Positions 7,101 through 58,582 of a DNA stretch of 64,000 nt are shown here, in pieces. The DNA is from an uncultured Helicobacter sp. (GTDB lineage: Bacteria > Campylobacterota > Campylobacteria > Campylobacterales > Helicobacteraceae). Positions within the stretch are counted from its first letter, which is position 1, and every line of letters starts with the position of its first letter. The stretch lies in the NCBI GenBank assembly GCA_949298825.1, contig CASFYB010000001.1:62001-126000 (forward strand). Reading direction: 5' to 3'. Below the pieces are notes generated by a model that made no database searches, was not told where the DNA came from, and worked only from the letters and a program-made list of their open reading frames with translations. Both the position numbers and the translations under genes were made by a program.

Positions 7101-8452
7101 TGAACCTGATTTCTACCGCTACGCTTAGCCTTATAAAGAAGCGCATCTGCATTTGCCAGCATAGCCTCACGAGAAACATGGCTAGCTCTATCTGATACAC
7201 CTATGGAAGTTGTGATATTAATATTCTTGTTTTTATAGTCTTTTCCTTCCTTCTCTACTGCTGCACAAATCCTCAAGGCTACATCCTTAGCATCATTTAA
7301 AGAAGTATTAGGCATAATGACTAAAAATTCATCTCCTCCATATCTACCTACAATATCACTATTGCGAGAATTATTTAAAAGAATATTTGAAAATAGCTTT
7401 AAGATCTCATCTCCTAGAATATGCCCACAAGTATCATTGATAGTCTTAAATCCATCAATATCAAAGAATAATACAGAATAGTTTTTGGCATCTTTGCTAA
7501 AGTTCTGTTCGCATTCTAAAAGCATGGCATTTAAATGGCCATGGTTGTAAAGATCAGTTAGTGTATCTCGACAAGTTTTCTCCTCCATATCCTTGAGAAT
7601 CCCCATCAACCTAGCAAGCTGGAAGGATAGCTCTTGCATGCCTCTTTCTTTATTTTGCAAGGAATTATTTAAAAACAAAACCTTGTCATAAAACTTATTA
7701 ACAATCTCAATAAAACCATCCTCACCATTACTTTGAGCGATAGCATTACTCTGCTCTACAATTTGATTTTTTATCTCTTTGAGTTTGTCTATTTGTCTAG
7801 AGTTTTCTTGCAAGGTATCTTGAAGGTCATTTAAAATATGGTGCACATCTTGAGAATCCAAACTTTCTCCAGCCCTCAAAACACCCTCACCAATATCACA
7901 TATCTTTTCTAGCTGCTCTAAAACCTCTTGATCAGTGATAGATTGAGAAAGATTAAGTAAAATATCTACAAGTCTTTTGCTTAATTTATCATCATAAATC
8001 CTAGATAGATGAGTAAGTCTAGCGACAATACTCACCACTCTTTTTTGCAATGATACATGAGTTTCTGAAGCCAAAATACTTCTCCAACCAGCTTCAATCC
8101 CCTTTAAATCCTCAAGATTTTCTAATCTTTCTATTTCAAATAGATATCTATACTCTTGTATGGACTTTGGAGTTAGCATATCAGAAAAGATCTGCAAAAG
8201 TGTTACACAAAGGTGAGAAAGCTGCTCAACCACCAAAGAAGATTCATAATTTTTAGTCATATTTTTCAATGCATCAACAGCCTTTTCTCGGTTATGATTA
8301 AGAGGCAGAGGAGCAAGATTGATATCTGATATTTTTTCTAATTGAAAGTCTTTTTGCTTTAAAAGCTTTAAAAAACTATCGATTCTAGATTCCTGGGTTA
8401 CATTTTCTTTATCTAAGATATCAAAAATCTCTTGCAATGTTTTTTTAATCAT
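7091..8452 (-). CDS. diguanylate cyclase (GGDEF domain)
   Basis: A 453-residue soluble protein; no membrane segment is evident. Residues 1-285 are mostly helical with coiled-coil-like stretches (about 205-285) and match no sensor domain I can name. The C-terminal GGDEF domain is complete: active site GGDEF at 372-376 and an allosteric inhibition site RxxD (RNSD) at 363-366, exactly five residues earlier. It should make c-di-GMP from two GTP and be product-inhibited. There is no EAL or HD-GYP domain. It lies between the lptE-like gene and folC, where H. pylori has no such gene. No receiver domain is seen, so the input signal is unknown. Confidence 0.92.
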   Translation of the reverse strand: MIKKTLQEIFDILDKENVTQESRIDSFLKLLKQKDFQLEKISDINLAPLPLNHNREKAVDALKNMTKNYESSLVVEQLSHLCVTLLQIFSDMLTPKSIQEYRYLFEIERLENLEDLKGIEAGWRSILASETHVSLQKRVVSIVARLTHLSRIYDDKLSKRLVDILLNLSQSITDQEVLEQLEKICDIGEGVLRAGESLDSQDVHHILNDLQDTLQENSRQIDKLKEIKNQIVEQSNAIAQSNGEDGFIEIVNKFYDKVLFLNNSLQNKERGMQELSFQLARLMGILKDMEEKTCRDTLTDLYNHGHLNAMLLECEQNFSKDAKNYSVLFFDIDGFKTINDTCGHILGDEILKLFSNILLNNSRNSDIVGRYGGDEFLVIMPNTSLNDAKDVALRICAAVEKEGKDYKNKNINITTSIGVSDRASHVSREAMLANADALLYKAKRSGRNQVQWQ

Positions 8453-8472: not shown

Positions 8473-8982
8473 TTATCTCTTCATATCCTTACCATAATAA
8501 GCAATCTGTGAAATCAGTCTATCTATACACTGGCCACCAGCCTCTGCGATCGCTTCTAGGCGATTGTTATAGGTGATTGTTGGATCGGCCAAAGAAACAG
8601 CATAGTCATAATAAGCACTATTAGTTAAAACCTTACTTTGTCTTGTGCCCTTATTTTTTATCTCAAACTCGATAGTAATATTAGCACGATAAAAGGTTGT
8701 AAAGCCATTTTTATCTGTCGCGATAGAGGTATCAGAAATATGCTTTATCACTACAGAAATAATACTATCTGCCTCTTCTTTGCCCTTGATCTCTTTTTGG
8801 AATCTAGCAACCATAACCTTATATAACAAATCTCTTAATTGTACCGAATTTTCAGTATTGGCTAAGTTAATTTTTAAATCTATATAGACACTATTTCCTA
8901 AGGCATTTTGACTATAATGGGCAACAGGGGCATACCCACACCCACAAAATACCAAAGCTATAAGAAATAAAAAGCAGCGCAT
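8473..8982 (-). CDS. lptE: LptE-like LPS-assembly lipoprotein
   Basis: A 169-residue protein with an N-terminal lipoprotein signal (MRCFLFLIALVFCGC), predicted to be cleaved before the second Cys of CGCG. The mature part has alternating strands with an LptE-like pattern (a long helix after AEAGGQCIDRLISQI at the end). LptE plugs LptD in the outer membrane during LPS export. The call is partly by synteny: H. pylori has a lipoprotein proposed as LptE next to leuS. Sequence conservation in LptE is low, so this is a moderate call. It lies 4 bp downstream of leuS and is probably co-transcribed with it. Confidence 0.7.
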   Translation of the reverse strand: MRCFLFLIALVFCGCGYAPVAHYSQNALGNSVYIDLKINLANTENSVQLRDLLYKVMVARFQKEIKGKEEADSIISVVIKHISDTSIATDKNGFTTFYRANITIEFEIKNKGTRQSKVLTNSAYYDYAVSLADPTITYNNRLEAIAEAGGQCIDRLISQIAYYGKDMKR

Positions 8983-11437: not shown

Positions 11438-12409
11438 TTATACTCGACCATTTTCATACATTTGTCTAAGACGCTCTTTTTCCTGTATTTTTTTAGCTTT
11501 TTGTATTTCTTTTTGATGATATTTTTCAATATCAAAGCCAAATAAAATCGCCAACTTAGGTGCGACAAACATAGAACTATAAGTACCAAAAACAACGCCA
11601 AACAACATTGGCAAAGAAAAGCCAATAATATTTTCTCCACCAAATAAATAAAGCGTAAGAAGGACAAAAAACACAGTAAGCGAAGTAAGCAGCGTCCTTG
11701 ATAATGTGCTTGATATTGCCTCATTAATAACTTCAGAAATATTATTGCTTTTATCAGTTAGCATTTTTTCCCTGATTCTGTCAAAGACAATGATCGTATC
11801 ATTGATAGAATAGCCAAGTAAGGTCAAAAGAGCGGCTATAACCTCAAGATTAAGATCAATATTAAAAACAATAACACTGGCTGCTGTGATAATCACATCA
11901 TGCACCAAGGCAATAATACCAGCTAGGGCAAAGCGCCATTCATAGCGGAAACTAACATACAGCATCATGGCTATTGTTGCTAAGACAAGGGATAAAATAC
12001 CTTTTTGTTTTAGCTCATTACCTACCTTTGGACCCACAGTATCGAGCTTTCTAATCTCAAAATCTCCACTACCCTTTAAGGTCGTCTCTATAACCTCATT
12101 TAAATTTTGCGTGCCAAAATGATCGCTATAGGGTATTTTAATTAGCAACTCTTCTTTGCTGCCATATTCACTAACCTGAGATCCCTTGAACCCTTCAGTA
12201 TTTTCAAGAATCTCACGCACCTTAGCAATTGGAGCTTCCTTTTCATAGCGGATCTGGACACTGCTTCCACCAGCAAAATCAATCCCTGCGCTAAAACCCT
12301 TTATAAAGATTAAGGCCAAAGCACCGATTGTTAAAAATATAGACAAAATAAGACCATATTTTGAATAAGCAACGAAATCAAAAATTTTTACTTTCTTGAA
12401 AATCTCCAT
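11438..12409 (-). CDS. secF: protein translocase subunit SecF
   Basis: A 323-residue membrane protein of the RND-like SecD/SecF family. It has one N-terminal membrane segment (about 15-38, ending GFSAGIDFAGGSS), a periplasmic loop, and five further membrane segments with the family motif GYSINDTIVVFDRIRE-like sequence at about 195-210. Together with SecD and YajC it uses the proton gradient to pull secreted proteins through SecYEG. The start has an AAGGAT site. It follows secD by 8 bp in the usual yajC-secD-secF order. Confidence 0.96.
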   Translation of the reverse strand: MEIFKKVKIFDFVAYSKYGLILSIFLTIGALALIFIKGFSAGIDFAGGSSVQIRYEKEAPIAKVREILENTEGFKGSQVSEYGSKEELLIKIPYSDHFGTQNLNEVIETTLKGSGDFEIRKLDTVGPKVGNELKQKGILSLVLATIAMMLYVSFRYEWRFALAGIIALVHDVIITAASVIVFNIDLNLEVIAALLTLLGYSINDTIIVFDRIREKMLTDKSNNISEVINEAISSTLSRTLLTSLTVFFVLLTLYLFGGENIIGFSLPMLFGVVFGTYSSMFVAPKLAILFGFDIEKYHQKEIQKAKKIQEKERLRQMYENGRV

Positions 12410-12417
12410 GACAATCC

Positions 12418-14004
12418 TTATTTTTTGATTCCAAACCAGAAGTTTAATGACTTGCTTTTAGAGAGATGAGGCATGATTAAATTATAAAATCCATGAGTGC
12501 CAATAATAGCCGTGATAATAGAAGCAATAATACCAATACCAGTAGTAATTGCAAATCCCTTAATAGCACCTGTACCATATGCATAAAGCAAGACAGAGGC
12601 AATAAGACTGGTAATATTAGAATCAAAGATTGCACGAGAAGCATTGATATAGCCAAGCTGTATTGATCTTTCTATGCTCTCACCAGCCTTTAGTGCTTCT
12701 CTAATCCTTTCATTAATAATTATATTAGCATCCACAGCCACACCGACAGTTAGCACAATACCAGCCATACCAGGAAGCGTTAAGGTTGCTCCAAAAATTG
12801 CCATAATCGCGATAATCAAAAATAGATTGATCACTAGCGCAAAACTTGCAATCACACCAGCCATAGAATAATACACAATCATAAAACCAACAACCAAAAT
12901 AAAGCCAGAAGCCAGAGCTATAATAGAGGATCTAATACTATCTGCCCCAAGACTTGGTCCCACACTCCTTTTTTCAAGCACTTCAAGAGGAGCTGAGAGT
13001 GCTCCTGATCTAAGGGTGATGGCTAGATCGCTAGCTTGTTCTTTGGTAAAGCCACCACTAATCTGACCGCTCCCTCCACCGATCCTTTGACGGATAACAG
13101 GAGCAGAATACACCTTACCATCAAGCACAATTGCCATGCGTTTACCAATATTAGAACCTGAAAAGTCCCCAAATATTTTTGCACCTTGAGAATCAAGAGT
13201 AAAGCTCACAACTGGCTGATGACTTTCATCATAGACAACCCGCGCATCTGTAATCCTATCCCCATCCAAAATAGGCACAGCCTTTAATAATATCTTTGCA
13301 TCTCCATATCCATCAAGATAGGGCAAAATCACATCGCCATACTTCTGGGCTTCAAGCTCACTCATACTATCAACGCGATTGTTCCTATCTTCATCTACAG
13401 CCATCATTTGCAAATGAGCTGATTTAGAAATTAGATTCCGCGCCCTATTTTCCTCTTCTATAGTCTTTATCCCAGGTAGGCCTACAAGGATATTATCTAC
13501 GCCTTGTTGTGTGATACTAGGTTCTGATAAGCCAAACTGATCAAGACGATTTCTAATAGTTGCTACAGCTTGCTCTACAGCATTTTTTTTGATATTTGCA
13601 GCCTCTTGTGCAGTCAGACTAATATGATATACAAGCTCTTGCTTATCAATCTTTAAGCCCTGGAATTTCTTTAAAATATCATCCAATAGCTTAGCATCCG
13701 CAGAATCTAAAAGCCCTATATCTATGCCATTATCACGAGCATGAAGATAATCTAGCAATACCTTTTTCTGCTTTAACTCAAAGTTAATAGAAGCTGATAA
13801 AGAACTATAATAAGCCTTGATAGCCTCATCAGTTTTTACACCAAGCAATAAGTTTAACCCACCCTGCAAATCTAGACCCAAAGAGATCTTTGGACCCTTA
13901 GTCTGAAAGAGAGAGGGTATGGAAAATCCGATACCAAAAATAAGCGCAACACAAAAAATAAATATTTTATAATTTGGTGCTGGTTTTAAGGAATGTGCTT
14001 TCAT
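12418..14004 (-). CDS. secD: protein translocase subunit SecD
   Basis: A 528-residue SecD. The N-terminal membrane segment is followed by the [14 protein letters not shown] signature, a large periplasmic P1 domain, and a C-terminal six-helix block containing [16 protein letters not shown]. It works with SecF and YajC at SecYEG. Its start abuts the yajC stop with an ATGA-like 1 bp overlap, so the two are translationally coupled. No defects are seen. Confidence 0.97.
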
Positions 14005-14291
14005 TATTTGATTGCTGTCTCTTCTTCAATCTTATAGGCAACATACTCTTTTGCTATCTTTACGGTTGTATCACTATTTAGCTTAACAGAAAAAAACTTC
14101 TCTTCAGCCTTTACAAACTCACAAATAAAGCCGCCATTAGTAACAATCTTATCACCCTTTTTTAGATTCTCTAGCATTTCTTTATGTTTTTTTTGCTGGA
14201 CTCGCTGCGGACGAATGATAAAAAAATAAAAAATTAAGATCAAAATTACAAAAGGTAATAGGGAAGTTAAAATACTTTGAGAGTTTTGCAT
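14004..14291 (-). CDS. yajC: YajC, accessory subunit of the Sec translocase
   Basis: A 95-residue protein with a single N-terminal membrane segment (about 10-28), the [17 protein letters not shown] motif just after it, and a small beta-rich cytoplasmic domain ([14 protein letters not shown]). This is the standard YajC layout and length. It heads the secDF operon. A hydrophobic first membrane segment and the coupled secD make the call secure. Confidence 0.95.
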
Positions 14292-14341
14292 AAATCATCC
14301 TTTGGATTAAAAATAAAAAATATAATAATAACGCGTTTTTG

Positions 14342-15508
14342 TTATTTTGAAAGCTTATTCATAAAAAAGAGTAAGACTGATCCAATAAGTGCGGCCAAAA
14401 ATGAAGCACACAAAATCGCAATCTTGGCTAGTTGAATAACATCTTCATTATCAAAGGCAAGATGAGTGACAAAAATAGACATCGTAAAGCCAATACCAGC
14501 CAAAAGTCCTGCTCCAAAAATATGCCGCCATAAAAGCTTTTCTGGTTTTTTGACAATCTTCATCTTATCGCATATAAAACATAATAAAAAAATTCCAAGT
14601 GGTTTGCCAAGTACCAAGCCAAGCAAAATCCCAAAAAATACACGAGTAGATTCCAAATCTATTACAAAAGCATCAAATCTAACACCAGCATTAGCTAATG
14701 CAAAAAGAGGCATAACCAAATATATACTATAAGGATGCAATAAATGCTCAAGTCGCTCAAGCATGCCAGGCTTATTTTCCTTACCTCCATCAATAGGTAT
14801 GCTAAAGGCTAGAATCACAGCAGAGACAGTAGCATGGATCCCACTAGCATGAATGCACAACCACAATAAAATCCCTAATATCAAATAATAAACAAACTTC
14901 TGGATTCTAAAATAATGTAAAATCGCTAAGCAGGCAACAAGACCACAAGATATAGCCAAATAGCCCCAGAGTATCTCACCTGTATAGAAAATCGCAATAA
15001 CAAGAATAGCCCCTAGATCATCCACCACAGCTAAAGTCACCAAAAAAAGCTTCAAAGAAGCAGGTATGCAAGATCCAAGCAAAGAAGCCACACCCAATGC
15101 AAAAGCAATATCTGTAGCCATTGGTATGCCAAAGCCATGAGAATAATTACTGTTTGCATTTACAGCTAGATACAATAATGCAGGGATGAGCATACCACCA
15201 ATAGCTGCTACTATAGGAAAGCCAGCTTTTTGCAAACCAGAAAGCTCCCCACGCAAGAATTCTCGCTTGATCTCTAGCCCAACAGTAAAGAAAAACAAAC
15301 TCATCAATACATCATTGATCCAATGATGCAGGCTAAAACCCACAAATAAGTCAAAAATCTGCACCCCGAGTTTATATTCCCAAAAATGTAAAAATTCAGA
15401 AGAGATAGCTGAATTTGCCATAAAAATGGCAATCAGCGTAGCAATCAATAATAAAATACCACCAAAAGATTCTGAATGTGTCAACTGACACAATCTTTTA
15501 AACATCAA
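14342..15508 (-). CDS. nhaA: Na+/H+ antiporter NhaA (copy 1)
   Basis: A 388-residue NhaA of normal length, with about 12 membrane helices. The ion-binding double aspartate is present in TLAVVDDLGAILVIA, and PMATDIAFALGVASLLG is conserved in helix IV. It exchanges sodium for protons at the inner membrane, helping pH and salt homeostasis. Its start overlaps the stop of the second nhaA by 4 bp (ATGA), so the pair is translationally coupled. It lies upstream of yajC-secDF, as the single nhaA does in H. pylori, so this copy is the likely positional ortholog. Confidence 0.95.
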   Translation of the reverse strand: MMFKRLCQLTHSESFGGILLLIATLIAIFMANSAISSEFLHFWEYKLGVQIFDLFVGFSLHHWINDVLMSLFFFTVGLEIKREFLRGELSGLQKAGFPIVAAIGGMLIPALLYLAVNANSNYSHGFGIPMATDIAFALGVASLLGSCIPASLKLFLVTLAVVDDLGAILVIAIFYTGEILWGYLAISCGLVACLAILHYFRIQKFVYYLILGILLWLCIHASGIHATVSAVILAFSIPIDGGKENKPGMLERLEHLLHPYSIYLVMPLFALANAGVRFDAFVIDLESTRVFFGILLGLVLGKPLGIFLLCFICDKMKIVKKPEKLLWRHIFGAGLLAGIGFTMSIFVTHLAFDNEDVIQLAKIAILCASFLAALIGSVLLFFMNKLSK

Positions 15509-41284: not shown

Positions 41285-41303
41285 AGAATTTCCTAATTCT
41301 TTA
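41282..41303 (+). terminator. hairpin terminator after the rhodanese gene
   Basis: A perfect 9-bp stem (TAAAGAATT / AATTCTTTA) with a TCCT loop starts at the stop codon and is followed by a T-rich stretch. It likely ends the rhodanese transcript; on the other strand it follows the truncated tape measure gene. Confidence 0.6.
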
Positions 41304-41307
41304 GATT

Positions 41308-41718
41308 CTATTTATCCATCAGATTTATCAGAAATACTACCTTTTTGACCATAGCAAAGTTAGCTTCAAAGTCCATAGCCTTGCTTATCGGTTTATAGAT
41401 AGCAGCATATAAACTACCTATAGTCCCTAAGATTTGACCCCTTAGCTCTAAAACCCTATTACAAGCCTCTGTAGTATCTAGTTTCAATTTAGCAATACTT
41501 GCCTTTGCTATCTGTTTTTCCATTTCTTTTAGGGCTTTAGGCTCTAGTTTAGGACCTATTAGCTTCCTATCCATTTCTTTTTTAAAGGATTTAATGGCTC
41601 CATTTAGGGATTTATCTAGCACATCACCTATTCCAAATGCTTTTTTGTTAACTTTATCTAATGCACTATTTAGGGCGCTTAGCTCTGGGGTTATGGATAG
41701 TTTTAATGTGCTTTGCAT
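41308..41718 (-). pseudogene. phage tail tape measure protein, N-terminal fragment
   Basis: The 136 residues have the amphipathic, helical, Lys/Leu-rich character of the start of TP901-type tape measure proteins. They reach the family hallmark AMDFEANFAMVKKVV near the end (compare FEA.MA.VKKVV in intact proteins), where the sequence changes to a few unrelated residues and stops. Intact tape measures are several hundred residues long, so more than three quarters is missing. The loss ends within about 20 bp of the rhodanese terminator. Confidence 0.75.
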
Positions 41719-41777
41719 ATTTATCCTTTTTTTGTATCTTATTTAATAGTAATTTTATTTATTTTAGGGGTAGGGTT

Positions 41778-42188
41778 TTGGGAAAGATATATTTATTGCT
41801 TTATATAATTTTTAATTTCTGGGGCGTCAATATTCACAGTAACATTAAAATTCTATTCCTTTTTTTCGCTCTTTTTTTTGGTTTTTTATTTGCAAAAAAA
41901 TGGGATAGGAATACCCGCCTAAAAAAGCAGGGATTAAAGATACCTTCTTTTTATGATGATTTTAAAAGAGATTTTAATACCCTAACCATTGCATTTAAAA
42001 AAACCATCAATGCACTTAAAATATCTTTTATCTGGGCTTCTAAGGCTATTTTTAAAGGATTAAAGTGGTTGTTTAAGCCTGCACATATTAGATTATTCTT
42101 TTTTCTTATTAAAGAAGGGATAGTTCTTTTCTTTGCCTTTGTACTCACAGTTATTGTTTTTGTTTCTATGTTTACTTTTTCTTTGTGA
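41778..42188 (+). CDS. small two-region membrane protein, candidate phage moron
   Basis: The frame is open from 41661, but an AGGGG/TAGGG ribosome-like stretch sits just ahead of a TTG at 41778, giving about 136 residues that avoid the tape measure gene. It has a hydrophobic N-terminal region (two adjacent segments around YLLLYIIFNFW and ILFLFFALFFGFLFA), a basic middle (about 50-100) and a last hydrophobic segment near LFFAFVLTVIVFVSMF. It lies on the strand opposite to the tail genes. I recognise no family. Such stray reverse-strand genes in prophages are often lysogenic-conversion or superinfection-exclusion genes; that is inference. Confidence 0.45.
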   Translation: MGKIYLLLYIIFNFWGVNIHSNIKILFLFFALFFGFLFAKKWDRNTRLKKQGLKIPSFYDDFKRDFNTLTIAFKKTINALKISFIWASKAIFKGLKWLFKPAHIRLFFFLIKEGIVLFFAFVLTVIVFVSMFTFSL

Positions 42189-42211
42189 TTTTGGCTTTTG
42201 AAGCCTAAGTA

Positions 42212-42349
42212 TTAAATCTTAGGAATTTGGGCATATCTTTTAGCTAATTCTATATAGTCTAAAAACTCGCTAAATCTCATCTCCTCTATATCCTTTTTAC
42301 TAAAATGCAGGGCATAGCCAATCAAGGCTACACCCTCTCTTAGTTTTTT
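42212..42349 (-). CDS. tail chaperone extension (GpE' type), reached by -1 frameshift
   Basis: From the slippery site at 42343-42349 the -1 frame continues for 43 codons to a TAA at 42212. It contains ALHFSKKDIEEMRFSEFLDYIELAKR, which has the pattern of the P2 GpE' family (bulky-hydrophobic-HF, then an M..EF..Y...A.R helix). No separate start codon with a ribosome site is evident, so it is expected only as a fusion to the upstream 87-residue chaperone (about 130 residues in total). It is too short for a simple ORF scan. Confidence 0.75.
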   Translation of the reverse strand, partial: KKLREGVALIGYALHFSKKDIEEMRFSEFLDYIELAKRYAQIPKI

Positions 42350-42603
42350 TCATCAAGGCCTATAAAATCAGTTACTACTTTTGCTAAGCGGTTAAATTCT
42401 CCTATAGGTAAGCTTTCTAAAAAGTCAGCATCAATCTCTCCCATACTCATATCGATTAAAAGAGATTTAGCCTGTTCTATCTCATCCTTGCTCTTAGCCC
42501 TTGCGCTTTTAAGCTGGAGTAATGTAGGTTCTTGTAAGATTACAACCTGCCCATCTCTAAAAACAAATTCCATTTTTTCTTTTTCAAAAGCTTTAAGTGC
42601 CAT
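42340..42603 (-). CDS. phage tail assembly chaperone (GpE-like)
   Basis: An 87-residue protein rich in charged residues. It has FVFRDGQVVILQEPTLLQLKSAR near the N-terminus and a D-x-L-ES-LPIGEFNRLAKVVTDFIG end, like phage tail assembly chaperones of the P2/Mu groups. It ends with GLDEKN just at a slippery heptamer. In such phages the short product and the frameshifted long product coat the tape measure during tail assembly. Here both flanking partners are broken, so it probably has no function, although its frame is intact. Confidence 0.75.
   Translation of the reverse strand: MALKAFEKEKMEFVFRDGQVVILQEPTLLQLKSARAKSKDEIEQAKSLLIDMSMGEIDADFLESLPIGEFNRLAKVVTDFIGLDEKN
42343..42349 (-). other. -1 programmed ribosomal frameshift site (A AAA AAC)
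   Basis: Reading on the minus strand, the chaperone frame ends GAA AAA AAC TAA. The heptamer A AAA AAC is a canonical -1 slippery sequence, placed directly at the stop codon, and the -1 frame then runs through the GpE'-like extension. This is the same arrangement as in the E/E+E' genes of contractile-tailed phages. Confidence 0.8.
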
Positions 42604-42613
42604 TTATTATCCT

Positions 42614-42916
42614 TTATGTGATGTTATTTCTAATACTTGCAAACTGGTCAATGCCATTTACCATAAATACTGAGTTTTCCACATCATAGACTATCACTGG
42701 TGCTTTATCTATCTGATAAGTGAAAGTATAGATAGCCATCTCAAAGCTTAGTTCTACTTCTTTCTCCATCTCAAAGCTAGGTAGCTCTCCTACCTTTACC
42801 ACACCACCAAAAGTAGCGATGATTTGTGTATCTTGCTGGGTTAGGCTTACATTTGTAGCATTTTGTTTTACATAGATTACTTTTGGCAGGATTGTAGATA
42901 GTGGGGTTAGCAGCAC
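42614..42916 (-). pseudogene. phage major tail tube protein, C-terminal half
   Basis: A 100-residue fragment whose end has the contractile-phage tail tube pattern: YQIDKAPVIVYDVENSVFMVNGIDQFASIR corresponds to Y.L.ID...VIE.D..N.I..VNG.DQLA.IR of FII/Mu tube proteins. The normal protein is about 170 residues. Only a GTG at 42916 begins the open frame; upstream in frame is a TGA that lies inside the CRISPR-repeat-derived sequence. The N-terminal half was therefore removed at the junction with the CRISPR element. Confidence 0.75.
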
Positions 42917-42925
42917 GGCATTGAC

Positions 42926-42955
42926 GCCACTTCACAAATCCTTCTATGCTATAAT
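42926..42955 (+). repeat. solitary CRISPR repeat remnant
   Basis: Thirty bases match positions 7-36 of the 36-base repeat of the array at 53268, with only two T-to-C differences; the first six bases (GTTTTA) are replaced. The 3' end TGCTATAAT is intact, so the extended -10 promoter of the repeat is kept. There is no second repeat, hence no spacer. It is in the same position relative to a tracrRNA as the last repeat of the main array. Confidence 0.85.
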
Positions 42956-42997
42956 AGGCATAGCTCAAATAACCTTGACAATGAGGCTAAAATACTA

Positions 42998-43003
42998 TAT
43001 AAT
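42998..43003 (+). promoter_or_regulatory. -10 box of the second tracrRNA
   Basis: TATAAT within ACTATATAATAG, 29 bases before the anti-repeat. The equivalent box in the main locus is TATATAATAG at 54071-54080, so the promoter is conserved between the copies. Confidence 0.55.
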
Positions 43004-43011
43004 AGTGCCTC

Positions 43012-43114
43012 TAATATAGCATTAGAATAAAGAAGAATTTGTAAAGTGGCTAAAATAAGGAGTTTTTTGTAGTTTCTCCGCGGGGTAACTGCCTAGCATC
43101 CCCTCAAAAACTAC
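43012..43114 (+). ncRNA. second tracrRNA copy
   Basis: From 43038 to 43115 the sequence is identical to the main tracrRNA region (54090-54167) except for one base. The anti-repeat at 43032-43055 is a perfect 24-base complement to repeat positions 2-25. The scaffold follows: GGAG (43061)...CTCC stem, GGGG...CCCC stem and the 3' CTAC at 43111-43114. The region upstream also aligns with the main locus, but contains about 20 extra bases between the -10 box and the anti-repeat. It is followed by a TTTCTTC stretch. The exact 5' end is unknown; I give the approximate start expected from the -10 box. Confidence 0.8.
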
Positions 43115-43257
43115 TTTCTTCTAAAATGAATTATCTACAAAATCTAAATCAAAAACTAGTTTTTATACATTTTTTATGCAATATCAAAATATTAAGATAC
43201 AAAAGTATCCAAAAACAATCTATAAGTCCTAGCTTATAGCTTTAATCCCATCTGAGA
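43115..43257. other. non-coding gap between the second tracrRNA and ppsA
   Basis: No gene is seen. It contains a perfect AT-rich palindrome (AAAAACTAGTTTTT, 43151-43164) followed by T-rich DNA, which could end the tracrRNA transcript, a small GATAC-AAAA-GTATC hairpin at 43196-43209, and the left arm of the ppsA terminator. Confidence 0.5.
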
Positions 43258-53267: not shown

Positions 53268-54029
53268 GTTTTAGCCACTTTACAAATTCTTCTATGCTAT
53301 AATATCAATGCCAGTTTTAAGGGACTTAATAATGTTTTAGCCACCTTAAAGATTCTTCTATGCTATAATCTGATGTACATTATTCTAAAAGCAGCACTAG
53401 TTTTAGCCACTTTACAAATTCTTCTATGCTATAATGGCAGAGAATTTCTTAGCCAACCAAACAGAGTTTTAGCCACTTTACAAATTCTTCTATGCTATAA
53501 TTGGGGAGTAAATAGCAATGGATGCTTAGGGGTTTTAGCCACTTTACAAATTCTTCTATGCTATAATAAGACCCCTTGCCTCCTAGTCTCTGGCTTTGTT
53601 TTAGCCACTTTACAAATTCTTCTATGCTATAATTTATTCGTGGATAGGGTTTTACCCTACCCTGTTTTAGCCACTTTACAAATTCTTCTATGCTATAATT
53701 ATAAATGATAAAAATCGACTCTATCTGTAGTTTTAGCCACTTTACAAATTCTTCTATGCTATAATAGCGAGTTTGGGATAAACTATGCTGAGCATGTTTT
53801 AGCCACTTTACAAATTCTTCTATGCTATAATTTGAAGCCTATATTTTTTTTATTTTTTTTGGTTTTAGCCACTTTACAAATTCTTCTATGCTATAATTTT
53901 TTCAATAGCCATCCTATCTGGTTGTGCGTTTTAGCCACTTTACAAATTCTTCTATGCTATAATTAAGCTAGATGATATATACAAAGCCATTAAGTTTTAG
54001 CCACTTTACAAATTCTTCTATGCTATAAT
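53268..54029 (+). CRISPR. type II-C CRISPR array, 12 repeats, 11 spacers
   Basis: Twelve 36-base repeats start at 53268 and recur every 66 bases (53334, 53400 ... 53994). All 11 spacers are exactly 30 bases. The repeat begins GTTTTAGCCACTTTAC and ends TCTATGCTATAAT. Eleven repeats are identical; repeat 2 (53334-53369) has three changes (positions 12, 16, 18). The GTTTTAG end fixes crRNA direction as plus strand (spacer then repeat), and each repeat ends in a perfect extended -10 (TGCTATAAT), as in Campylobacter and Neisseria II-C arrays, so each crRNA can start within its spacer. cas genes lie to the right on the minus strand. I found no protospacer by eye in this window. Confidence 0.98.
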
Positions 54030-54043
54030 AGACATAGCTCAAA

Positions 54044-54063
54044 TAGCCTTGATATCGAGGCTA
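54044..54063. repeat. near-perfect palindrome between the last repeat and the tracrRNA promoter
   Basis: The 20 bases TAGCCTTGATATCGAGGCTA can fold with nine pairs (one G-T). The same element is present, slightly degraded, at 42970-42989 in the second copy. It may be a leader element, a protein-binding site or a hairpin in a long tracrRNA transcript. Confidence 0.5.
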
Positions 54064-54072
54064 GAGGGATTA

Positions 54073-54078
54073 TATAAT
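54073..54078 (+). promoter_or_regulatory. -10 box of the tracrRNA
   Basis: TATAAT in TATATAATAG, 9 bases before the expected 5' region of the tracrRNA and 12 before the anti-repeat. It is conserved in the second copy. A second possible promoter is the TGCTATAAT of the last repeat, 44 bases upstream. Confidence 0.6.
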
Positions 54079-54084
54079 AGCAAT

Positions 54085-54167
54085 AAGGGTTTGTAGAGTG
54101 GCTAAAATAAGGAGTTTTTTGTAGTTTCTCCGCGGGGTAACTGCCTAGCATCCCCTCAAAAACTACT
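54085..54167 (+). ncRNA. tracrRNA of the type II-C system
   Basis: The anti-repeat (54085-54107) pairs with repeat positions 2-24 with three G-U wobbles. It is followed by AATAAGGAG and a scaffold like C. jejuni tracrRNA: GGAG (54111-54114) pairs with CTCC (54128-54131), GGGG (54134-54137) with CCCC (54152-54155), and the loop GTAG (54121-54124) with the 3' CTAC (54163-54166). It is on the plus strand, same direction as the array, and faces cas2, whose stop is at 54178. No clear terminator is seen behind it. Confidence 0.88.
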
Positions 54168-54177
54168 CTATAAAATC

Positions 54178-54486
54178 TTAAAACAACAATAATCCCTCTG
54201 GTTTTTGTGCCTCTTCAGTAGGGCTACTACTACCTATCATAATCTTCATGTTATCAAACTGTCTTTCTGTGAGCATAAGCGCACGTATATGACCCTTTTT
54301 AGGTATCAACATTTCTAGTCTTTTCATACATGTATTAGCACTCTGTACCCCTCTACAAATCCTTACATATACAGAAAATTGCATCATAAAAAATCCTTCT
54401 TTAATAAGGCTGTTTCGAAATTTTGAAGCTGCTTTCCTATCATTTTTAGTATATGTGGGCATATCAAACATCACTAACACTCTCAT
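54178..54486 (-). CDS. cas2: CRISPR-associated endonuclease Cas2
   Basis: A protein of 102 residues from the ATG at 54486. The Cas2 ferredoxin-like start is MRVLVMFDMP, with the conserved Asp, and the YVRICRGVQSANTCMKRLE segment is typical of type II Cas2. The frame is open to 54516, but a GGAAGAG site fits the later ATG and reduces the overlap with cas1 to 23 bp. Cas2 forms the core of the Cas1-Cas2 integrase. It is convergent with the tracrRNA, with only about 12 bp between ends. Confidence 0.95.
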   Translation of the reverse strand: MRVLVMFDMPTYTKNDRKAASKFRNSLIKEGFFMMQFSVYVRICRGVQSANTCMKRLEMLIPKKGHIRALMLTERQFDNMKIMIGSSSPTEEAQKPEGLLLF

Positions 54487-55390
54487 AAATCTCTCTTCCA
54501 TTTGAATTTTCTCCAAAAATGGGCAACTCTAATGCATCCAAATCCCCAGATATAGCCCTAGCAAAACTCTGCACACTCCTAGATATTGCCCTACTTAGCG
54601 AATAGCTCTTATTATTAGTTGTGATAATTTTTGCTTGTAAAATATTGGCCAAATAGATTCTATGCTCTAATCTAAAGCTATTTTCATTCCCAAGATCCAT
54701 ACCAAGAACCCTAGAATCTACAAACACTCTATATGGCTCCATGAGATCATCAGCAAGATTAAAGGGATTGAATTGATTTTTGTGAAAAATACCAATAGCA
54801 GGGAGGAAACCAGAAGCTACTAAGTTTCTTGCCACAACACTACGCACAATTGCATAGCCATAATTTAGCGCAGAGTTAATAACACAAAAATCTTTGCGCA
54901 TAAATCCTTTTCCAAAAATAGCTGGAAAATAAAGCATAGCTGCCTTTGCCTCATCATTATCCAAATCAGCCATCTTGACATTCTTATAAAATAACTCTAA
55001 TTTCTTTGCTATAGGATTTTTATCTAAAAGTGATATCTGGTTAGCAATCTTTGCTTTAATAATCCTTTGCCATAAAACTGCTTTGATTCTTTGAGTGAGA
55101 TTTAGCTGGATCCCTAATATTTTTGATGCCCTATAATGAGGAAGATATGGCAGAAAGATCCCATTTGGCATATGAGAGGCATCACAGCTAAATAGCATAA
55201 TCTTGTATTGAGCCAATATGCTTAAAAGACTAGAGCTAAATACAACCTGTGGGGTATCAATAATGATATTTTCAATATCCTTCAAAGGGATAGATATCTC
55301 CTTATCTTGGATAATAATTAAATTATTATTCCTGCAAGAAAGCCTAGCTGGTTTACTAAAAAATAAAGTCCTGTAGGATTCTTCAAACAT
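54464..55390 (-). CDS. cas1: CRISPR-associated integrase Cas1 (type II)
   Basis: A 308-residue Cas1. Typical stretches are NSALNYGYAIVRSVV, ASGFLPAIGIFHKNQFNPFNLADDLMEPYR (metal-binding His and Asp) and an upstream Glu in DNDEAKAAMLYF. The N-terminal beta-domain is complete. It integrates new spacers at the array. It starts 15 bp after the cas9 stop; cas9-cas1-cas2 without cas4 or csn2 defines the minimal II-C layout. Confidence 0.97.
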   Translation of the reverse strand: MFEESYRTLFFSKPARLSCRNNNLIIIQDKEISIPLKDIENIIIDTPQVVFSSSLLSILAQYKIMLFSCDASHMPNGIFLPYLPHYRASKILGIQLNLTQRIKAVLWQRIIKAKIANQISLLDKNPIAKKLELFYKNVKMADLDNDEAKAAMLYFPAIFGKGFMRKDFCVINSALNYGYAIVRSVVARNLVASGFLPAIGIFHKNQFNPFNLADDLMEPYRVFVDSRVLGMDLGNENSFRLEHRIYLANILQAKIITTNNKSYSLSRAISRSVQSFARAISGDLDALELPIFGENSNGREIYESVSDV

Positions 55391-55405: not shown

Positions 55406-58400
55406 TTAAGATTTTTTATTTTTCATCTCATCTCTAGCAGCCCTAGGAGCATCAGTCACTTCACCCAAAACAGATACCATCTTCTTTTTAAATACTTTTA
55501 AAGTTTGAATACCCACTCCCTCTTTTAGAAAAGTCATCTCTTCTTTCTTCATATAAAAATTTTGCTCATCACCTTTAAGTTTATAACTACTTGTATGCTC
55601 AACTGTTATAGAAGCAGAGGAAATATTAGCAGCCTTATATAGACCTAAAACAGGATTTTTCATTTGTTTAGTTTGTATTTCTATCACATCATTAGGATAT
55701 AAAGAAAAACAAAACTCATAATCCTCATCCATCTCAATCCAATCCTTTTTACCACTTACACAAGCCTTATTTGGTATTTTCCCAATAGCAATATCATAAG
55801 TATAAATAGGCACTAGATAAAACCCTTTTTTCTTTTTACCTTTAAAAATATCTATACGCACCATTGATCCATTCTTTACAACACCTTCATTAATAGCCCT
55901 TAGCTTCCCTAGCTCTACAGCACGCTTTATCCCCTCTACTCCTTCATAGGTTTTCCCATATTCCCTATCTTTAAAGCTTCTTACTGTCTCCTCATGCAAT
56001 GCCCCACTAGCCTTATGAGATACCTTATGAGATACCATGATAGATTCAACACTTCTTACAACATTATCCCTAAAATTATTCATTGGCCAACGCAAGGCAT
56101 ATTTTATTTTTTCATCAAGTTTTTCAGTTTTTTCAACCTTTCCTTTATATACAAGCTCTTTTTGCCTTAAATATTCGCTAAAGCGCTGGATACTAGCAGG
56201 GTTTACACATGCGATGATAATAGCATCTTCAGCATGATGGATGTGATTAGAACGATCCTTTTTATCAATCCCCCAATAATGCCTTAAAAATGAGATAAAA
56301 CTACCAGATACAATCCTGATATGCTCTTTTTTATCCCCTATGGGCAAGAAGTCTAAATATTCTCTAACATATTTGCTTACTACCCTAGAAATATATCCAG
56401 TATCTACCAAATTACGCCTTAAAAATTCAGCCCTAGCACCCTCATTCCTATCTTTGAAATTTTTATTAAAAAGTTTTCTTACTCTCTCTTTGCCAAGCCT
56501 CATTGATCTTACACGTTCTACAAATGCATCCCACTGCTCCTGATTGCTACCAAAACGTTCATAAGGAGTTTCAGTACGTTTATTTTGATTCTCACCTGCT
56601 AGACAAAGAATCTTATTATTTTGAGAATCATCCAAACTTCTACTTAAAGGTAAAATATGGTCTATCTGAGTATTCCCATTAAACAAATCATGGATTGTAA
56701 TTTTTCGTCCACTATAAACACAAGTTTCATTTTGCATCTTAAATAATTTGACCCTTAAAATATTTTCTTTGTGGTCTATCCCAAGCTCATCTAAAAGCCT
56801 CTTAGCCTCATTATTTTCTTTTTCATTATTTTTTTGCATCCTTTCAATTCTCGTACGCTCTTCCTTGCTCAAGCCCACTTCACGGGCCAGCTCAATATTA
56901 ATATAATGAAACTTGCCATATTTTTGCAAGATTGCATTTAACACTTTTCTAAATTCGCTTAATGCGCGCATAACAACTGGGTTTTTAATCTCAAAATAGC
57001 TATCCTCTTTTACTATCTCACAAAGAGGGGGTAGGACCCCTTTTTGATGTGCTTGCTTAGGTTTTAATACACCCTGTGCATAAAGCTCTGCTATAGCTTC
57101 ATCATAGCGCATCCCCTTTTGCATCAAAGGGATTATAAAACTAAGAGCCTTCAGGCTAAGATTGATCGTTTTAGAAAAGCTAAAATTCTGATTTTTAATC
57201 TCTTGTATCTTAGATTCTAATCCCATCTTTTTTAGACCTTCAACAATATGATCCCAATTCTTATTTTCAGCTAGTAAGGTAGCTAGTACATCCAGCTTAG
57301 TCTCATCAATACCCAATGAAGCCAGCTTAATGGTTGAAGTAAACTTTATAAAAATAGCACTTTCTGCCTTTTCTTTAGAATAATCAAGCTCCCTAAACTG
57401 ATAAGTATCTGGCAACTTTAATAATGCCCTTAAGCCTTTGTAGCTAAGACCTGTTTTAGACCCCATAGCCTTAGAGAGAATCTGATTAATCGAATCTGGA
57501 ATATCATAGACTATACCCGTAGTATTTACTATGTGTTTTAGTAGATTAATAATCCTAGTTAATGCGATGAATTTCTGTGCACTTGGCGTATCCTTAAAAG
57601 CCCTATTCTCATCTCTAAAAAACTCACATTTCCCGACCTTATTTTTCAAGCTCTTTAGTGGACGTTGATAAAAAATTAAGCCTTCTTTTTTATTTTTTTT
57701 CAGAGCTTTTTCATCACCAAGTAAAGTCTTGCAAAACTCATCATTAATAAATTTACTCCCTAAGCTTTTTTGAACTTCAAAAATCATTTCAAGTTCATTT
57801 CTTAGCTCACTTCTAGCCACAGAATATTTATAGCTAGGATTCTTATCCTTCATTCTATTTCTTACATTATCCATTTGGCCATCTGGACGTAATTTGCGAT
57901 AATACTCCCAATAAAACATCTGACCTATGGTCTTATAGCCACTGTTTTTGCATTTTTGCTGATTTTCTTGGATGCATGATAGTAGCTTTTTACCATCCTT
58001 GTCCTGATCCATCCCATAGGTGATATCATCATACCCCCTTCTTTTAGCAATATGCAAAATCACTCTAGCTAGCTCCCTGGCCTCTAGCTTCTTATCCAAT
58101 GCTAAAGCACGTAGCTCCCATACAGACTTATCACCTTTTTTAAAAAGCTTTTTTTGTTTTTGCTCCAGCTCTTCTTTAAGCGGGATTTTTTCTTCATTGA
58201 TTCTAAAAAGAGTGGGTAGCTTATTTTTTTCATTCTGCTCTAGCATATCTTCTAGTGGTATACCTAGCATCTTAGATAGATATTTTTTTATCTCTAGCAT
58301 ACGCCTAGCACGCCTTCTTAGCAAACGCCTTTGAGACCTAGCTGCTCTTCTTGGCAGAGCCAAGGAAGTCTTATCTTTTGGGTGCTCAGCCTTAGGGAAA

Positions 58401-58522
58401 ATCCTAACCCCAGAGGCTATGATTTTATTCTCATTAGGACTCTTAGTATTATCATCCATCTCTACTAATGCCCAACCAATGCTTGAAATACCAATATCGA
58501 TTCCTAATGTTTTTATTAACAT
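55406..58522 (-). CDS. cas9: CRISPR-associated endonuclease Cas9 (type II-C)
   Basis: A 1038-residue Cas9, slightly longer than C. jejuni Cas9 (984). RuvC-I has Asp9 in LGIDIGISSIGWAL. The arginine-rich bridge helix is at 58-81 and the REC lobe follows to about 500. RuvC-II has Glu544 in INIELAREVG, HNH has the catalytic Asp621-His622 in QIDHILPLS, and RuvC-III has His762-His763 and Asp766 in IHHAEDAIIIA. The C-terminal WED/PAM-interacting part is complete. All catalytic residues are present. With crRNA and tracrRNA it cuts DNA. An AAGGA site precedes the ATG and a TATACT-like box lies at 58556-58561. It is divergent from bioD. Confidence 0.98.
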   Translation of the reverse strand: MLIKTLGIDIGISSIGWALVEMDDNTKSPNENKIIASGVRIFPKAEHPKDKTSLALPRRAARSQRRLLRRRARRMLEIKKYLSKMLGIPLEDMLEQNEKNKLPTLFRINEEKIPLKEELEQKQKKLFKKGDKSVWELRALALDKKLEARELARVILHIAKRRGYDDITYGMDQDKDGKKLLSCIQENQQKCKNSGYKTIGQMFYWEYYRKLRPDGQMDNVRNRMKDKNPSYKYSVARSELRNELEMIFEVQKSLGSKFINDEFCKTLLGDEKALKKNKKEGLIFYQRPLKSLKNKVGKCEFFRDENRAFKDTPSAQKFIALTRIINLLKHIVNTTGIVYDIPDSINQILSKAMGSKTGLSYKGLRALLKLPDTYQFRELDYSKEKAESAIFIKFTSTIKLASLGIDETKLDVLATLLAENKNWDHIVEGLKKMGLESKIQEIKNQNFSFSKTINLSLKALSFIIPLMQKGMRYDEAIAELYAQGVLKPKQAHQKGVLPPLCEIVKEDSYFEIKNPVVMRALSEFRKVLNAILQKYGKFHYINIELAREVGLSKEERTRIERMQKNNEKENNEAKRLLDELGIDHKENILRVKLFKMQNETCVYSGRKITIHDLFNGNTQIDHILPLSRSLDDSQNNKILCLAGENQNKRTETPYERFGSNQEQWDAFVERVRSMRLGKERVRKLFNKNFKDRNEGARAEFLRRNLVDTGYISRVVSKYVREYLDFLPIGDKKEHIRIVSGSFISFLRHYWGIDKKDRSNHIHHAEDAIIIACVNPASIQRFSEYLRQKELVYKGKVEKTEKLDEKIKYALRWPMNNFRDNVVRSVESIMVSHKVSHKASGALHEETVRSFKDREYGKTYEGVEGIKRAVELGKLRAINEGVVKNGSMVRIDIFKGKKKKGFYLVPIYTYDIAIGKIPNKACVSGKKDWIEMDEDYEFCFSLYPNDVIEIQTKQMKNPVLGLYKAANISSASITVEHTSSYKLKGDEQNFYMKKEEMTFLKEGVGIQTLKVFKKKMVSVLGEVTDAPRAARDEMKNKKS

Positions 58523-58555: not shown

Positions 58556-58561
58556 AGTATA
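58556..58561 (-). promoter_or_regulatory. possible -10 box of cas9-cas1-cas2
   Basis: On the minus strand TATACT lies 34 bases before the cas9 ATG in the divergent gap with bioD. It is a one-base deviation from TATAAT; no clear -35 box is seen. The call rests on position only. Confidence 0.35.
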
Positions 58562-58582
58562 TAGTATTTAAAATTTCTAAAC

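What the first reader, a model, noticed from the sequence alone, without database searches (positions are those of the whole stretch)
42926..43114. A second tracrRNA with its own CRISPR repeat remnant, fused to a broken prophage tail gene
The last-repeat/palindrome/promoter/tracrRNA unit of the main array (53994-54167) is present again 11 kb away at 42926-43114. The scaffold is identical except for one base in 78, while the flanks have drifted more, which suggests recent duplication or purifying selection on the RNA. On its left, a phage tail tube gene is cut at this element: the in-frame stop upstream of the fragment lies within the repeat-derived DNA. Possible explanations are a relic of an older array next to ppsA hit by the prophage, a backup tracrRNA, or a phage-carried CRISPR mimic like the solitary repeat units known as RNA anti-CRISPRs. 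The truncated tube gene argues against a phage-maintained gene in its present form.
Basis: partly seen in the sequence, partly recalled or inferred. Interest (0 to 1): 0.9.

Follow-up and report, generated by a model that had tools for sequence, protein, structure and literature searches.

The report
Second tracrRNA gene beside prophage scrap
This Helicobacter carries a second, apparently intact copy of the small RNA gene (tracrRNA) its CRISPR-Cas9 system needs, stranded 11 kb from the main locus against a scrap of dead virus; spare copies of this gene turn out to be common in its relatives, so the usual one-tracrRNA-per-system picture does not hold for this group.

Summary
At 42926-43115 (+) there is a second tracrRNA unit: 30 nt of a CRISPR repeat, leader, promoter, anti-repeat and scaffold. 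It lies 11,052 bp from the tracrRNA of an intact-looking type II-C Cas9 locus. The scaffold differs by one base in 78. Phage homology ends at 42925 and repeat homology starts at 42926.

It is not a phage gene. No viral record searched carries this tracrRNA. The nearest relative (G098) lacks both the prophage scrap and the unit.

Nor is it a lone oddity. By covariance-model search, 9 of 32 tracrRNA-bearing Helicobacteraceae genomes hold two to four copies. Most extras are cas-less "repeat(s)+leader+tracrRNA" units, some with one repeat, as here. In G096 the copy beside cas2 has lost its anti-repeat and only the detached copy can pair.

Most likely it is a cut-down orphan array end, fused to phage DNA by a deletion and still supplying tracrRNA in trans. 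The anti-repeat matches the distant array 25/25 and its own neighbouring repeat poorly. It carries the only perfect sigma-70 promoter in the 64 kb. The scaffold is unchanged while the leader drifted. Transcription is untested, and gene conversion could explain the scaffold identity. RNA anti-CRISPR is unlikely. Verdict: new variant of a known kind.

The parts
42926..42955 (+). Truncated CRISPR repeat (lacks the 5' GTTTTA) that ends with an intact extended -10, TGCTATAAT. Two changes against the main array repeat (C for T at 42933 and 42940).
42956..43008 (+). Leader with the sigma-70 promoter TTGACA-N17-TATAAT (42975-43003), the only exact 12/12 match in the 64 kb window
43009..43030 (+). Extended 5' part of the tracrRNA: holds TATAGCAT, complementary to the 3' end of the repeat, and an insertion absent from the main copy
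43031..43055 (+). Anti-repeat: 25/25 Watson-Crick complement of 11 of the 12 main-array repeats
43056..43115 (+). tracrRNA scaffold, identical to the main copy over 43045-43115
41290..42925 (-). Internal scrap of a Helicobacter prophage tail module: tape-measure N-terminal fragment 41308-41718, tail assembly chaperone 42340-42603, tail tube C-terminal part 42614-42925. Intact copies of the module exist in other Helicobacter prophages.
53269..54029 (+). Main CRISPR array: 12 repeats, period 66. The second repeat from the distal end is degenerate.
54049..54167 (+). Main tracrRNA: promoter TTGATA-N18-TATAAT, anti-repeat with three G-U pairs, scaffold
54178..54516 (-). cas2 (named from its place after cas9-cas1 and its conserved relatives at the same place in other genomes)
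54464..55390 (-). cas1 (same basis)
55406..58522 (-). cas9, 1038 aa, CjCas9-like, no internal stop

Best explanation
42926-43115 is a second, probably working tracrRNA gene. By origin it is the leader end (one repeat, leader, tracrRNA) of a cas-less orphan CRISPR array of the kind found in several Helicobacter species. A deletion between a resident prophage and that array cut off the array and the first 6 nt of the last repeat, leaving phage tube DNA fused to the remainder. In action (inferred), RNA polymerase starts from TTGACA-N17-TATAAT near 43010, and possibly also from the extended -10 in the repeat remnant. The anti-repeat pairs with crRNAs from the main array 11 kb away, RNase III trims the duplex, and Cas9 takes it up. 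It therefore adds tracrRNA dose, or replaces the weaker-pairing main copy. Shown: the anatomy, the pairing and its energies, the promoter sequence, the conservation pattern, and the recurrence in relatives. Inferred: transcription, Cas9 loading, and the deletion event.
For: (1) Pairing follows the distant array, not the neighbour. The anti-repeat is a 25/25 complement of 11 array repeats. Predicted duplexes with the array repeat: -44.1 kcal/mol for the second copy, -34.4 for the main copy; second copy with its own repeat remnant -29.9. Relatives G098, G097, G100 and G096 have C (repeat) and G (anti-repeat) at one of these positions; this array changed to T and only the second copy changed to A. 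(2) It has the only 12/12 sigma-70 promoter in 64 kb; the main copy scores 11/12 with an 18-nt spacer. (3) Leader plus repeat differ at about 12 of 81 sites, the scaffold at 0 of 60; Fisher p=0.001. (4) Kind: 9 of 32 tracrRNA-bearing Helicobacteraceae genomes have 2-4 copies, and one genome of another family of the order has two. Most extras keep anti-repeat and scaffold. One-repeat units in G068 and G069 show the same drifting leader with an unchanged scaffold, 56/56. (5) In G096 the copy next to cas2 has a ruined anti-repeat (-10.5 kcal/mol) and only the detached copy pairs well (-33.5).
Against: No transcript data exist. There is one genome per species, so no within-species test was possible. 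Gene conversion with the main copy could produce the same scaffold identity; the G068 solitary unit looks like a leader mosaic of main and solitary types. The compensatory argument rests on a single substitution plus an unbroken 25-nt match. G098 lacks the unit, so it is not essential to the system. The G096 main copy also keeps its scaffold although it cannot pair, so scaffold conservation alone does not prove function.
Confidence: 0.62

Rival explanations
1. A dead relic. The unit is a leftover of an orphan array end; promoter and scaffold are intact only because it is young or was overwritten by gene conversion from the main copy.
For: It sits in a scrap of broken phage DNA that the sister species lacks. 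The repeat is truncated and altered. Gene-conversion-like mosaics exist between main and solitary units in G068.
Against: The leader has diverged about 20% from the main copy, so it is not very young. The anti-repeat differs from the main copy at 4 sites, so it was not converted from it, yet it fits the array perfectly. Two leader changes moved the promoter toward consensus, taking G098 as the older state.
Confidence: 0.27
2. A phage-carried RNA anti-CRISPR or CRISPR mimic (Racr, solitary repeat unit) trapped with its prophage.
For: It abuts phage tail DNA. Tail-module remnants also lie near CRISPR or tracrRNA units in G096 and at a shared locus in G105 and G107.
Against: Six pattern scans of 2.9 million viral contigs found no carrier. 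Phage records gave only a 26-nt chance match and plasmids none. Intact relatives of this prophage have no tracrRNA. The promoter in the repeat reads away from the repeat, and the encoded RNA is a full cognate tracrRNA. Viral type II mini-arrays are reported to lack tracrRNA genes (PMC8616872).
Confidence: 0.04
3. A regulatory long tracrRNA that guides Cas9 to the cas promoter in the manner of tracr-L.
For: A 12-nt word in the leader (42990-43001) recurs upstream of cas9 at 58558-58569; shuffle p about 0.02.
Against: The shared word is -10-type promoter sequence in both places. No repeat-like segment lies between it and the anti-repeat, so no single-guide fold is visible. The main copy's leader shares nothing of 8 nt or more. 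tracr-L is described for II-A (PMC8616872).
Confidence: 0.03

Closest known systems
Type II-C tracrRNA of Campylobacter and Helicobacter (C. jejuni minimal CRISPR; PMC3656092, PMC4607530)
   Same: Anti-repeat complementary to the repeat, downstream of the array, sigma-70 -10 in front, repeats that carry an extended -10; repeat changes mirrored in the tracrRNA
   Different: Known loci are described with one tracrRNA beside array and cas genes; here there is a second, cas-less and array-less copy 11 kb away
CampyICE1 CRISPR-Cas9 (PMC8743540)
   Same: tracrRNA located in an array that is not beside cas9; several short arrays in one element
   Different: There the detached tracrRNA is the only one and lies on an integrative element; here it duplicates an intact main copy and no mobile element was found
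Solitary repeat units / RNA anti-CRISPRs (PMC10651486)
   Same: A single repeat without cas genes next to phage DNA
   Different: Has leader, promoter and tracrRNA; repeat truncated; prophage is an internal scrap; no viral homologue found
Orphan CRISPR arrays
   Same: cas-less, with the same repeat family as a cas-bearing locus elsewhere in the genome
   Different: These orphan units bring their own tracrRNA, and in this case nothing of the array but one partial repeat is left

Membership tests
Type II-C tracrRNA | Anti-repeat complementary to the repeats of a cognate array | tested here: met
   25/25 complement, -44.1 kcal/mol
Type II-C tracrRNA | Conserved scaffold of the cognate Cas9 clade | tested here: met
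   97.9 bits with covariance model R1 (it is one of the 16 training rows); scaffold identical to the cas-linked copy and one indel from G098
Type II-C tracrRNA | Promoter upstream of the anti-repeat | tested here: met
   TTGACA-N17-TATAAT, sequence match only
Type II-C tracrRNA | Cognate cas9 in the genome | tested here: met
   1038-aa CjCas9-like ORF
Type II-C tracrRNA | Transcribed, RNase III-processed, bound to Cas9 | not testable with these tools
   no RNA data
RNA anti-CRISPR / solitary repeat unit | Encoded in an intergenic region of a virus, prophage or plasmid | tested here: not met
   Sits at the edge of an internal phage scrap; no carrier in viral contigs, phage records or plasmids
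RNA anti-CRISPR / solitary repeat unit | Repeat expressed as a small RNA from a promoter just upstream | tested here: not met
   Repeat truncated; its only strong promoter element is its own 3' end and reads away from it; a weak 9/12 match (42921-42950) overlaps it
Orphan repeat-leader-tracrRNA unit of Helicobacter (defined in this work) | Repeat(s), leader and tracrRNA without cas genes, beside a cas-bearing main locus | tested here: met
   Same order and extent as units in G067, G068, G069, G105, G107; here with one truncated repeat
tracr-L natural single guide | Guide matching the cas promoter, followed by a segment that pairs with the anti-repeat | tested here: inconclusive
   12-nt match of -10-type sequence, p about 0.02; no pairing segment seen by eye

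The most novel reading that the evidence does not exclude
In this Helicobacter lineage the tracrRNA gene is migrating away from its CRISPR locus. Detached repeat-leader-tracrRNA copies take over as the main supplier while the cas-linked copy loses pairing strength: partly in the window genome (three G-U pairs and one mismatch in the main copy), completely in G096. The duplicated unit is the leader end of the array, so arrays can spread as self-sufficient, cas-less cassettes that bring their own tracrRNA.
Probability: 0.3. Interest if true: 0.75.

Novelty: new variant of a known kind. Interest (0 to 1): 0.62.

Why it matters
tracrRNA is normally treated as a single gene sitting next to its array. 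Here, and in more than a quarter of the tracrRNA-bearing Helicobacteraceae genomes examined, it is multi-copy and can be detached. That affects how tracrRNAs are predicted for new Cas9s: the copy beside the array may be the broken one, as in G096. It gives natural pairs for testing which of two tracrRNAs Cas9 prefers. It also offers a route by which orphan arrays stay functional and spread. I found no description of multi-copy tracrRNA genes in the papers I could search; the main comparative paper on tracrRNA evolution (Faure 2018) was not held.

Tried and rejected
Phage origin: six tracrRNA patterns against viral contigs, none found; phage and plasmid blastn, only a 26-nt chance match in a Cellulophaga phage; covariance model on four annotated Helicobacter prophages with related tube genes and on genome loci around them, nothing above noise. 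Tube protein in viral contigs: no relative. Self-targeting as the cause of the deletion: none of the 11 spacers matches the prophage scrap or its relatives beyond 13-15 nt words, apart from the low-complexity spacer 9. Rfam: no tracrRNA match, only a tRNA. Old array at ppsA: suggestive but weak. G096 has one 27/36 repeat-like stretch plus partial ones about 63 bp apart (shuffles reach 25), in the opposite orientation, and no other species shows one. Association of extra tracrRNAs with the phage tail module: four genomes, but G105 and G107 share one locus and tape-measure relics are scattered in many places, so I do not claim it. First genome-contig scan with the single Cas9 found nothing; the profile scan worked and gave organism names.

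Full report
What is there. The window holds a type II-C CRISPR-Cas9 locus: cas9 55406-58522 (-), cas1 and cas2 (-), and on the other strand an array of 12 repeats (53269-54029) followed by its tracrRNA (to 54167). A second copy of the last-repeat/leader/tracrRNA unit lies at 42926-43115, 11,052 bp away. The copies differ by one base in the last 78 nt, by four bases in the anti-repeat, and by about 20% plus an insertion in the leader.

The junction. On the left the unit abuts minus-strand phage DNA: tail tube (PF04985), tail assembly chaperone (PF10109) and the start of a tape-measure gene. Homology to intact Helicobacter prophages runs to 42925, and repeat homology starts at 42926. Both ends of the phage piece lie inside genes, so it is an internal scrap. 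The first in-frame stop upstream of the tube fragment is in the repeat remnant. The nearest relative, G098 (its CRISPR contig has the same length as a Helicobacter anseris 2013ZJHSD2 record), has a simple 176-bp gap between the same two genes, with neither phage DNA nor tracrRNA.

Is it only a relic? Three observations speak for function. First, pairing. The second anti-repeat is a perfect 25-nt complement of the present array repeat. It pairs more strongly with it than the main tracrRNA does (-44.1 against -34.4 kcal/mol), and poorly with its own neighbouring repeat (-29.9). At one of these positions the relatives have C in the repeat and G in the anti-repeat; this array has T, the main tracrRNA kept G (a G-U pair), and only the second copy has A. 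Second, the promoter. TTGACA-17-TATAAT at 42975-43003 is the only perfect match in the whole window on either strand; the main copy has TTGATA-18-TATAAT. Third, the scaffold shows no change in 60 nt while leader and repeat show about 12 in 81 (Fisher p=0.001). I treat the third as the weakest, because gene conversion could do the same: the solitary unit of G068 looks like a mosaic of main and solitary leaders.

It is one of a kind that recurs. A tracrRNA covariance model searched over 121 Helicobacteraceae genomes found tracrRNAs in 32, and two to four copies in nine. I read the seven other multi-copy genomes outside this genus in detail and G096 separately. The extra copies are real tracrRNAs, and nearly all keep an anti-repeat that fits the local repeat (L112 of G105 does not). 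G067, G105 and G107 have cas-less arrays that end in their own tracrRNA. G066 and G082 have such units on both sides of the cas operon. G068 and G069 have units with a single repeat, one of them orthologous in the two species (95% over 1.9 kb). Many pairwise matches between units begin at one repeat (-107) and end at the end of the tracrRNA (+81), the same extent as in the window. A genome of another family in the order also has two equal-scoring copies 13 kb apart.

The most telling relative is G096, in the same genus. Its tracrRNA beside cas2 has lost the anti-repeat, while a detached copy 6.3 kb away keeps one that fits the array (-10.5 against -33.5 kcal/mol). If that system works, it must work through the detached copy.

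What it is not. No phage, plasmid or viral contig searched carries such a tracrRNA. The promoter in the repeat remnant reads away from the repeat, and the RNA is complete, so it does not look like the repeat mimics described as RNA anti-CRISPRs (PMC10651486). A tracr-L-like role is not supported beyond a 12-nt promoter-type word. No spacer of the array targets the prophage scrap.

Origin and mechanism. The simplest history that fits is an orphan array end of the kind seen in other Helicobacter, next to a prophage, trimmed by one deletion that joined the tube gene to the last repeat. What the deletion removed is the array and the repeat's 5' end, needed for spacer uptake; what remains is what is needed to make tracrRNA. 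This history is inference. Whether the RNA is made and used is not known, and that is the decisive test.

Noticed in passing
L031 (G096) 8626-8713 and 14915-14999: In this relative the cas-linked tracrRNA has lost its anti-repeat; only a detached copy 6.3 kb away can pair with the array repeats.
   Followed up: yes
L100-L115 (G066, G067, G068, G069, G105, G107; G082 = L108): Cas-less units of repeat(s)+leader+tracrRNA, two to four tracrRNA copies per genome, one with a cas2 fragment (L111) and one with the leader deleted (L112).
   Followed up: partly
L102, L104, L106, and the distal end of the L103 array: Solitary II-C units sit directly after what looks like a leader and repeat of another CRISPR type (GACCCGATTAAAGGGGATTGAAAT), as if II-C units were joined to a second kind of array.
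   Followed up: no
window 41308-42925; L031:10171-12411; L110:1396-3109; L202:2187-4652: Remnants of one Helicobacter prophage tail module (TAC, tape measure) lie within about 5 kb of CRISPR/tracrRNA units in four genomes (three independent loci). Could be chance, because tape-measure relics are scattered.
   Followed up: partly
L063 (G096) 7137-7240: Degenerate CRISPR-repeat-like stretches about 63 bp apart between tsaD and ppsA.
   Followed up: partly
L032 (G098) 12009-15068: The sister species' cas9 is split into ORFs of 899 and 113 aa, and its array is down to two repeats: a decaying system.
   Followed up: no
window 54044-54063 and 42970-42989: A palindrome (AGCCTTGATATCGAGGCT in the main copy, weaker in the second) overlaps the -35 of the tracrRNA promoter; a relative (G095) has CCCTTGACAAGGGG there, a possible operator.
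   Followed up: no
window 42990-43001 and 58558-58569: A 12-nt word is shared between the second tracrRNA's promoter and the cas9 upstream region (shuffle p about 0.02), probably common -10 sequence.
   Followed up: yes
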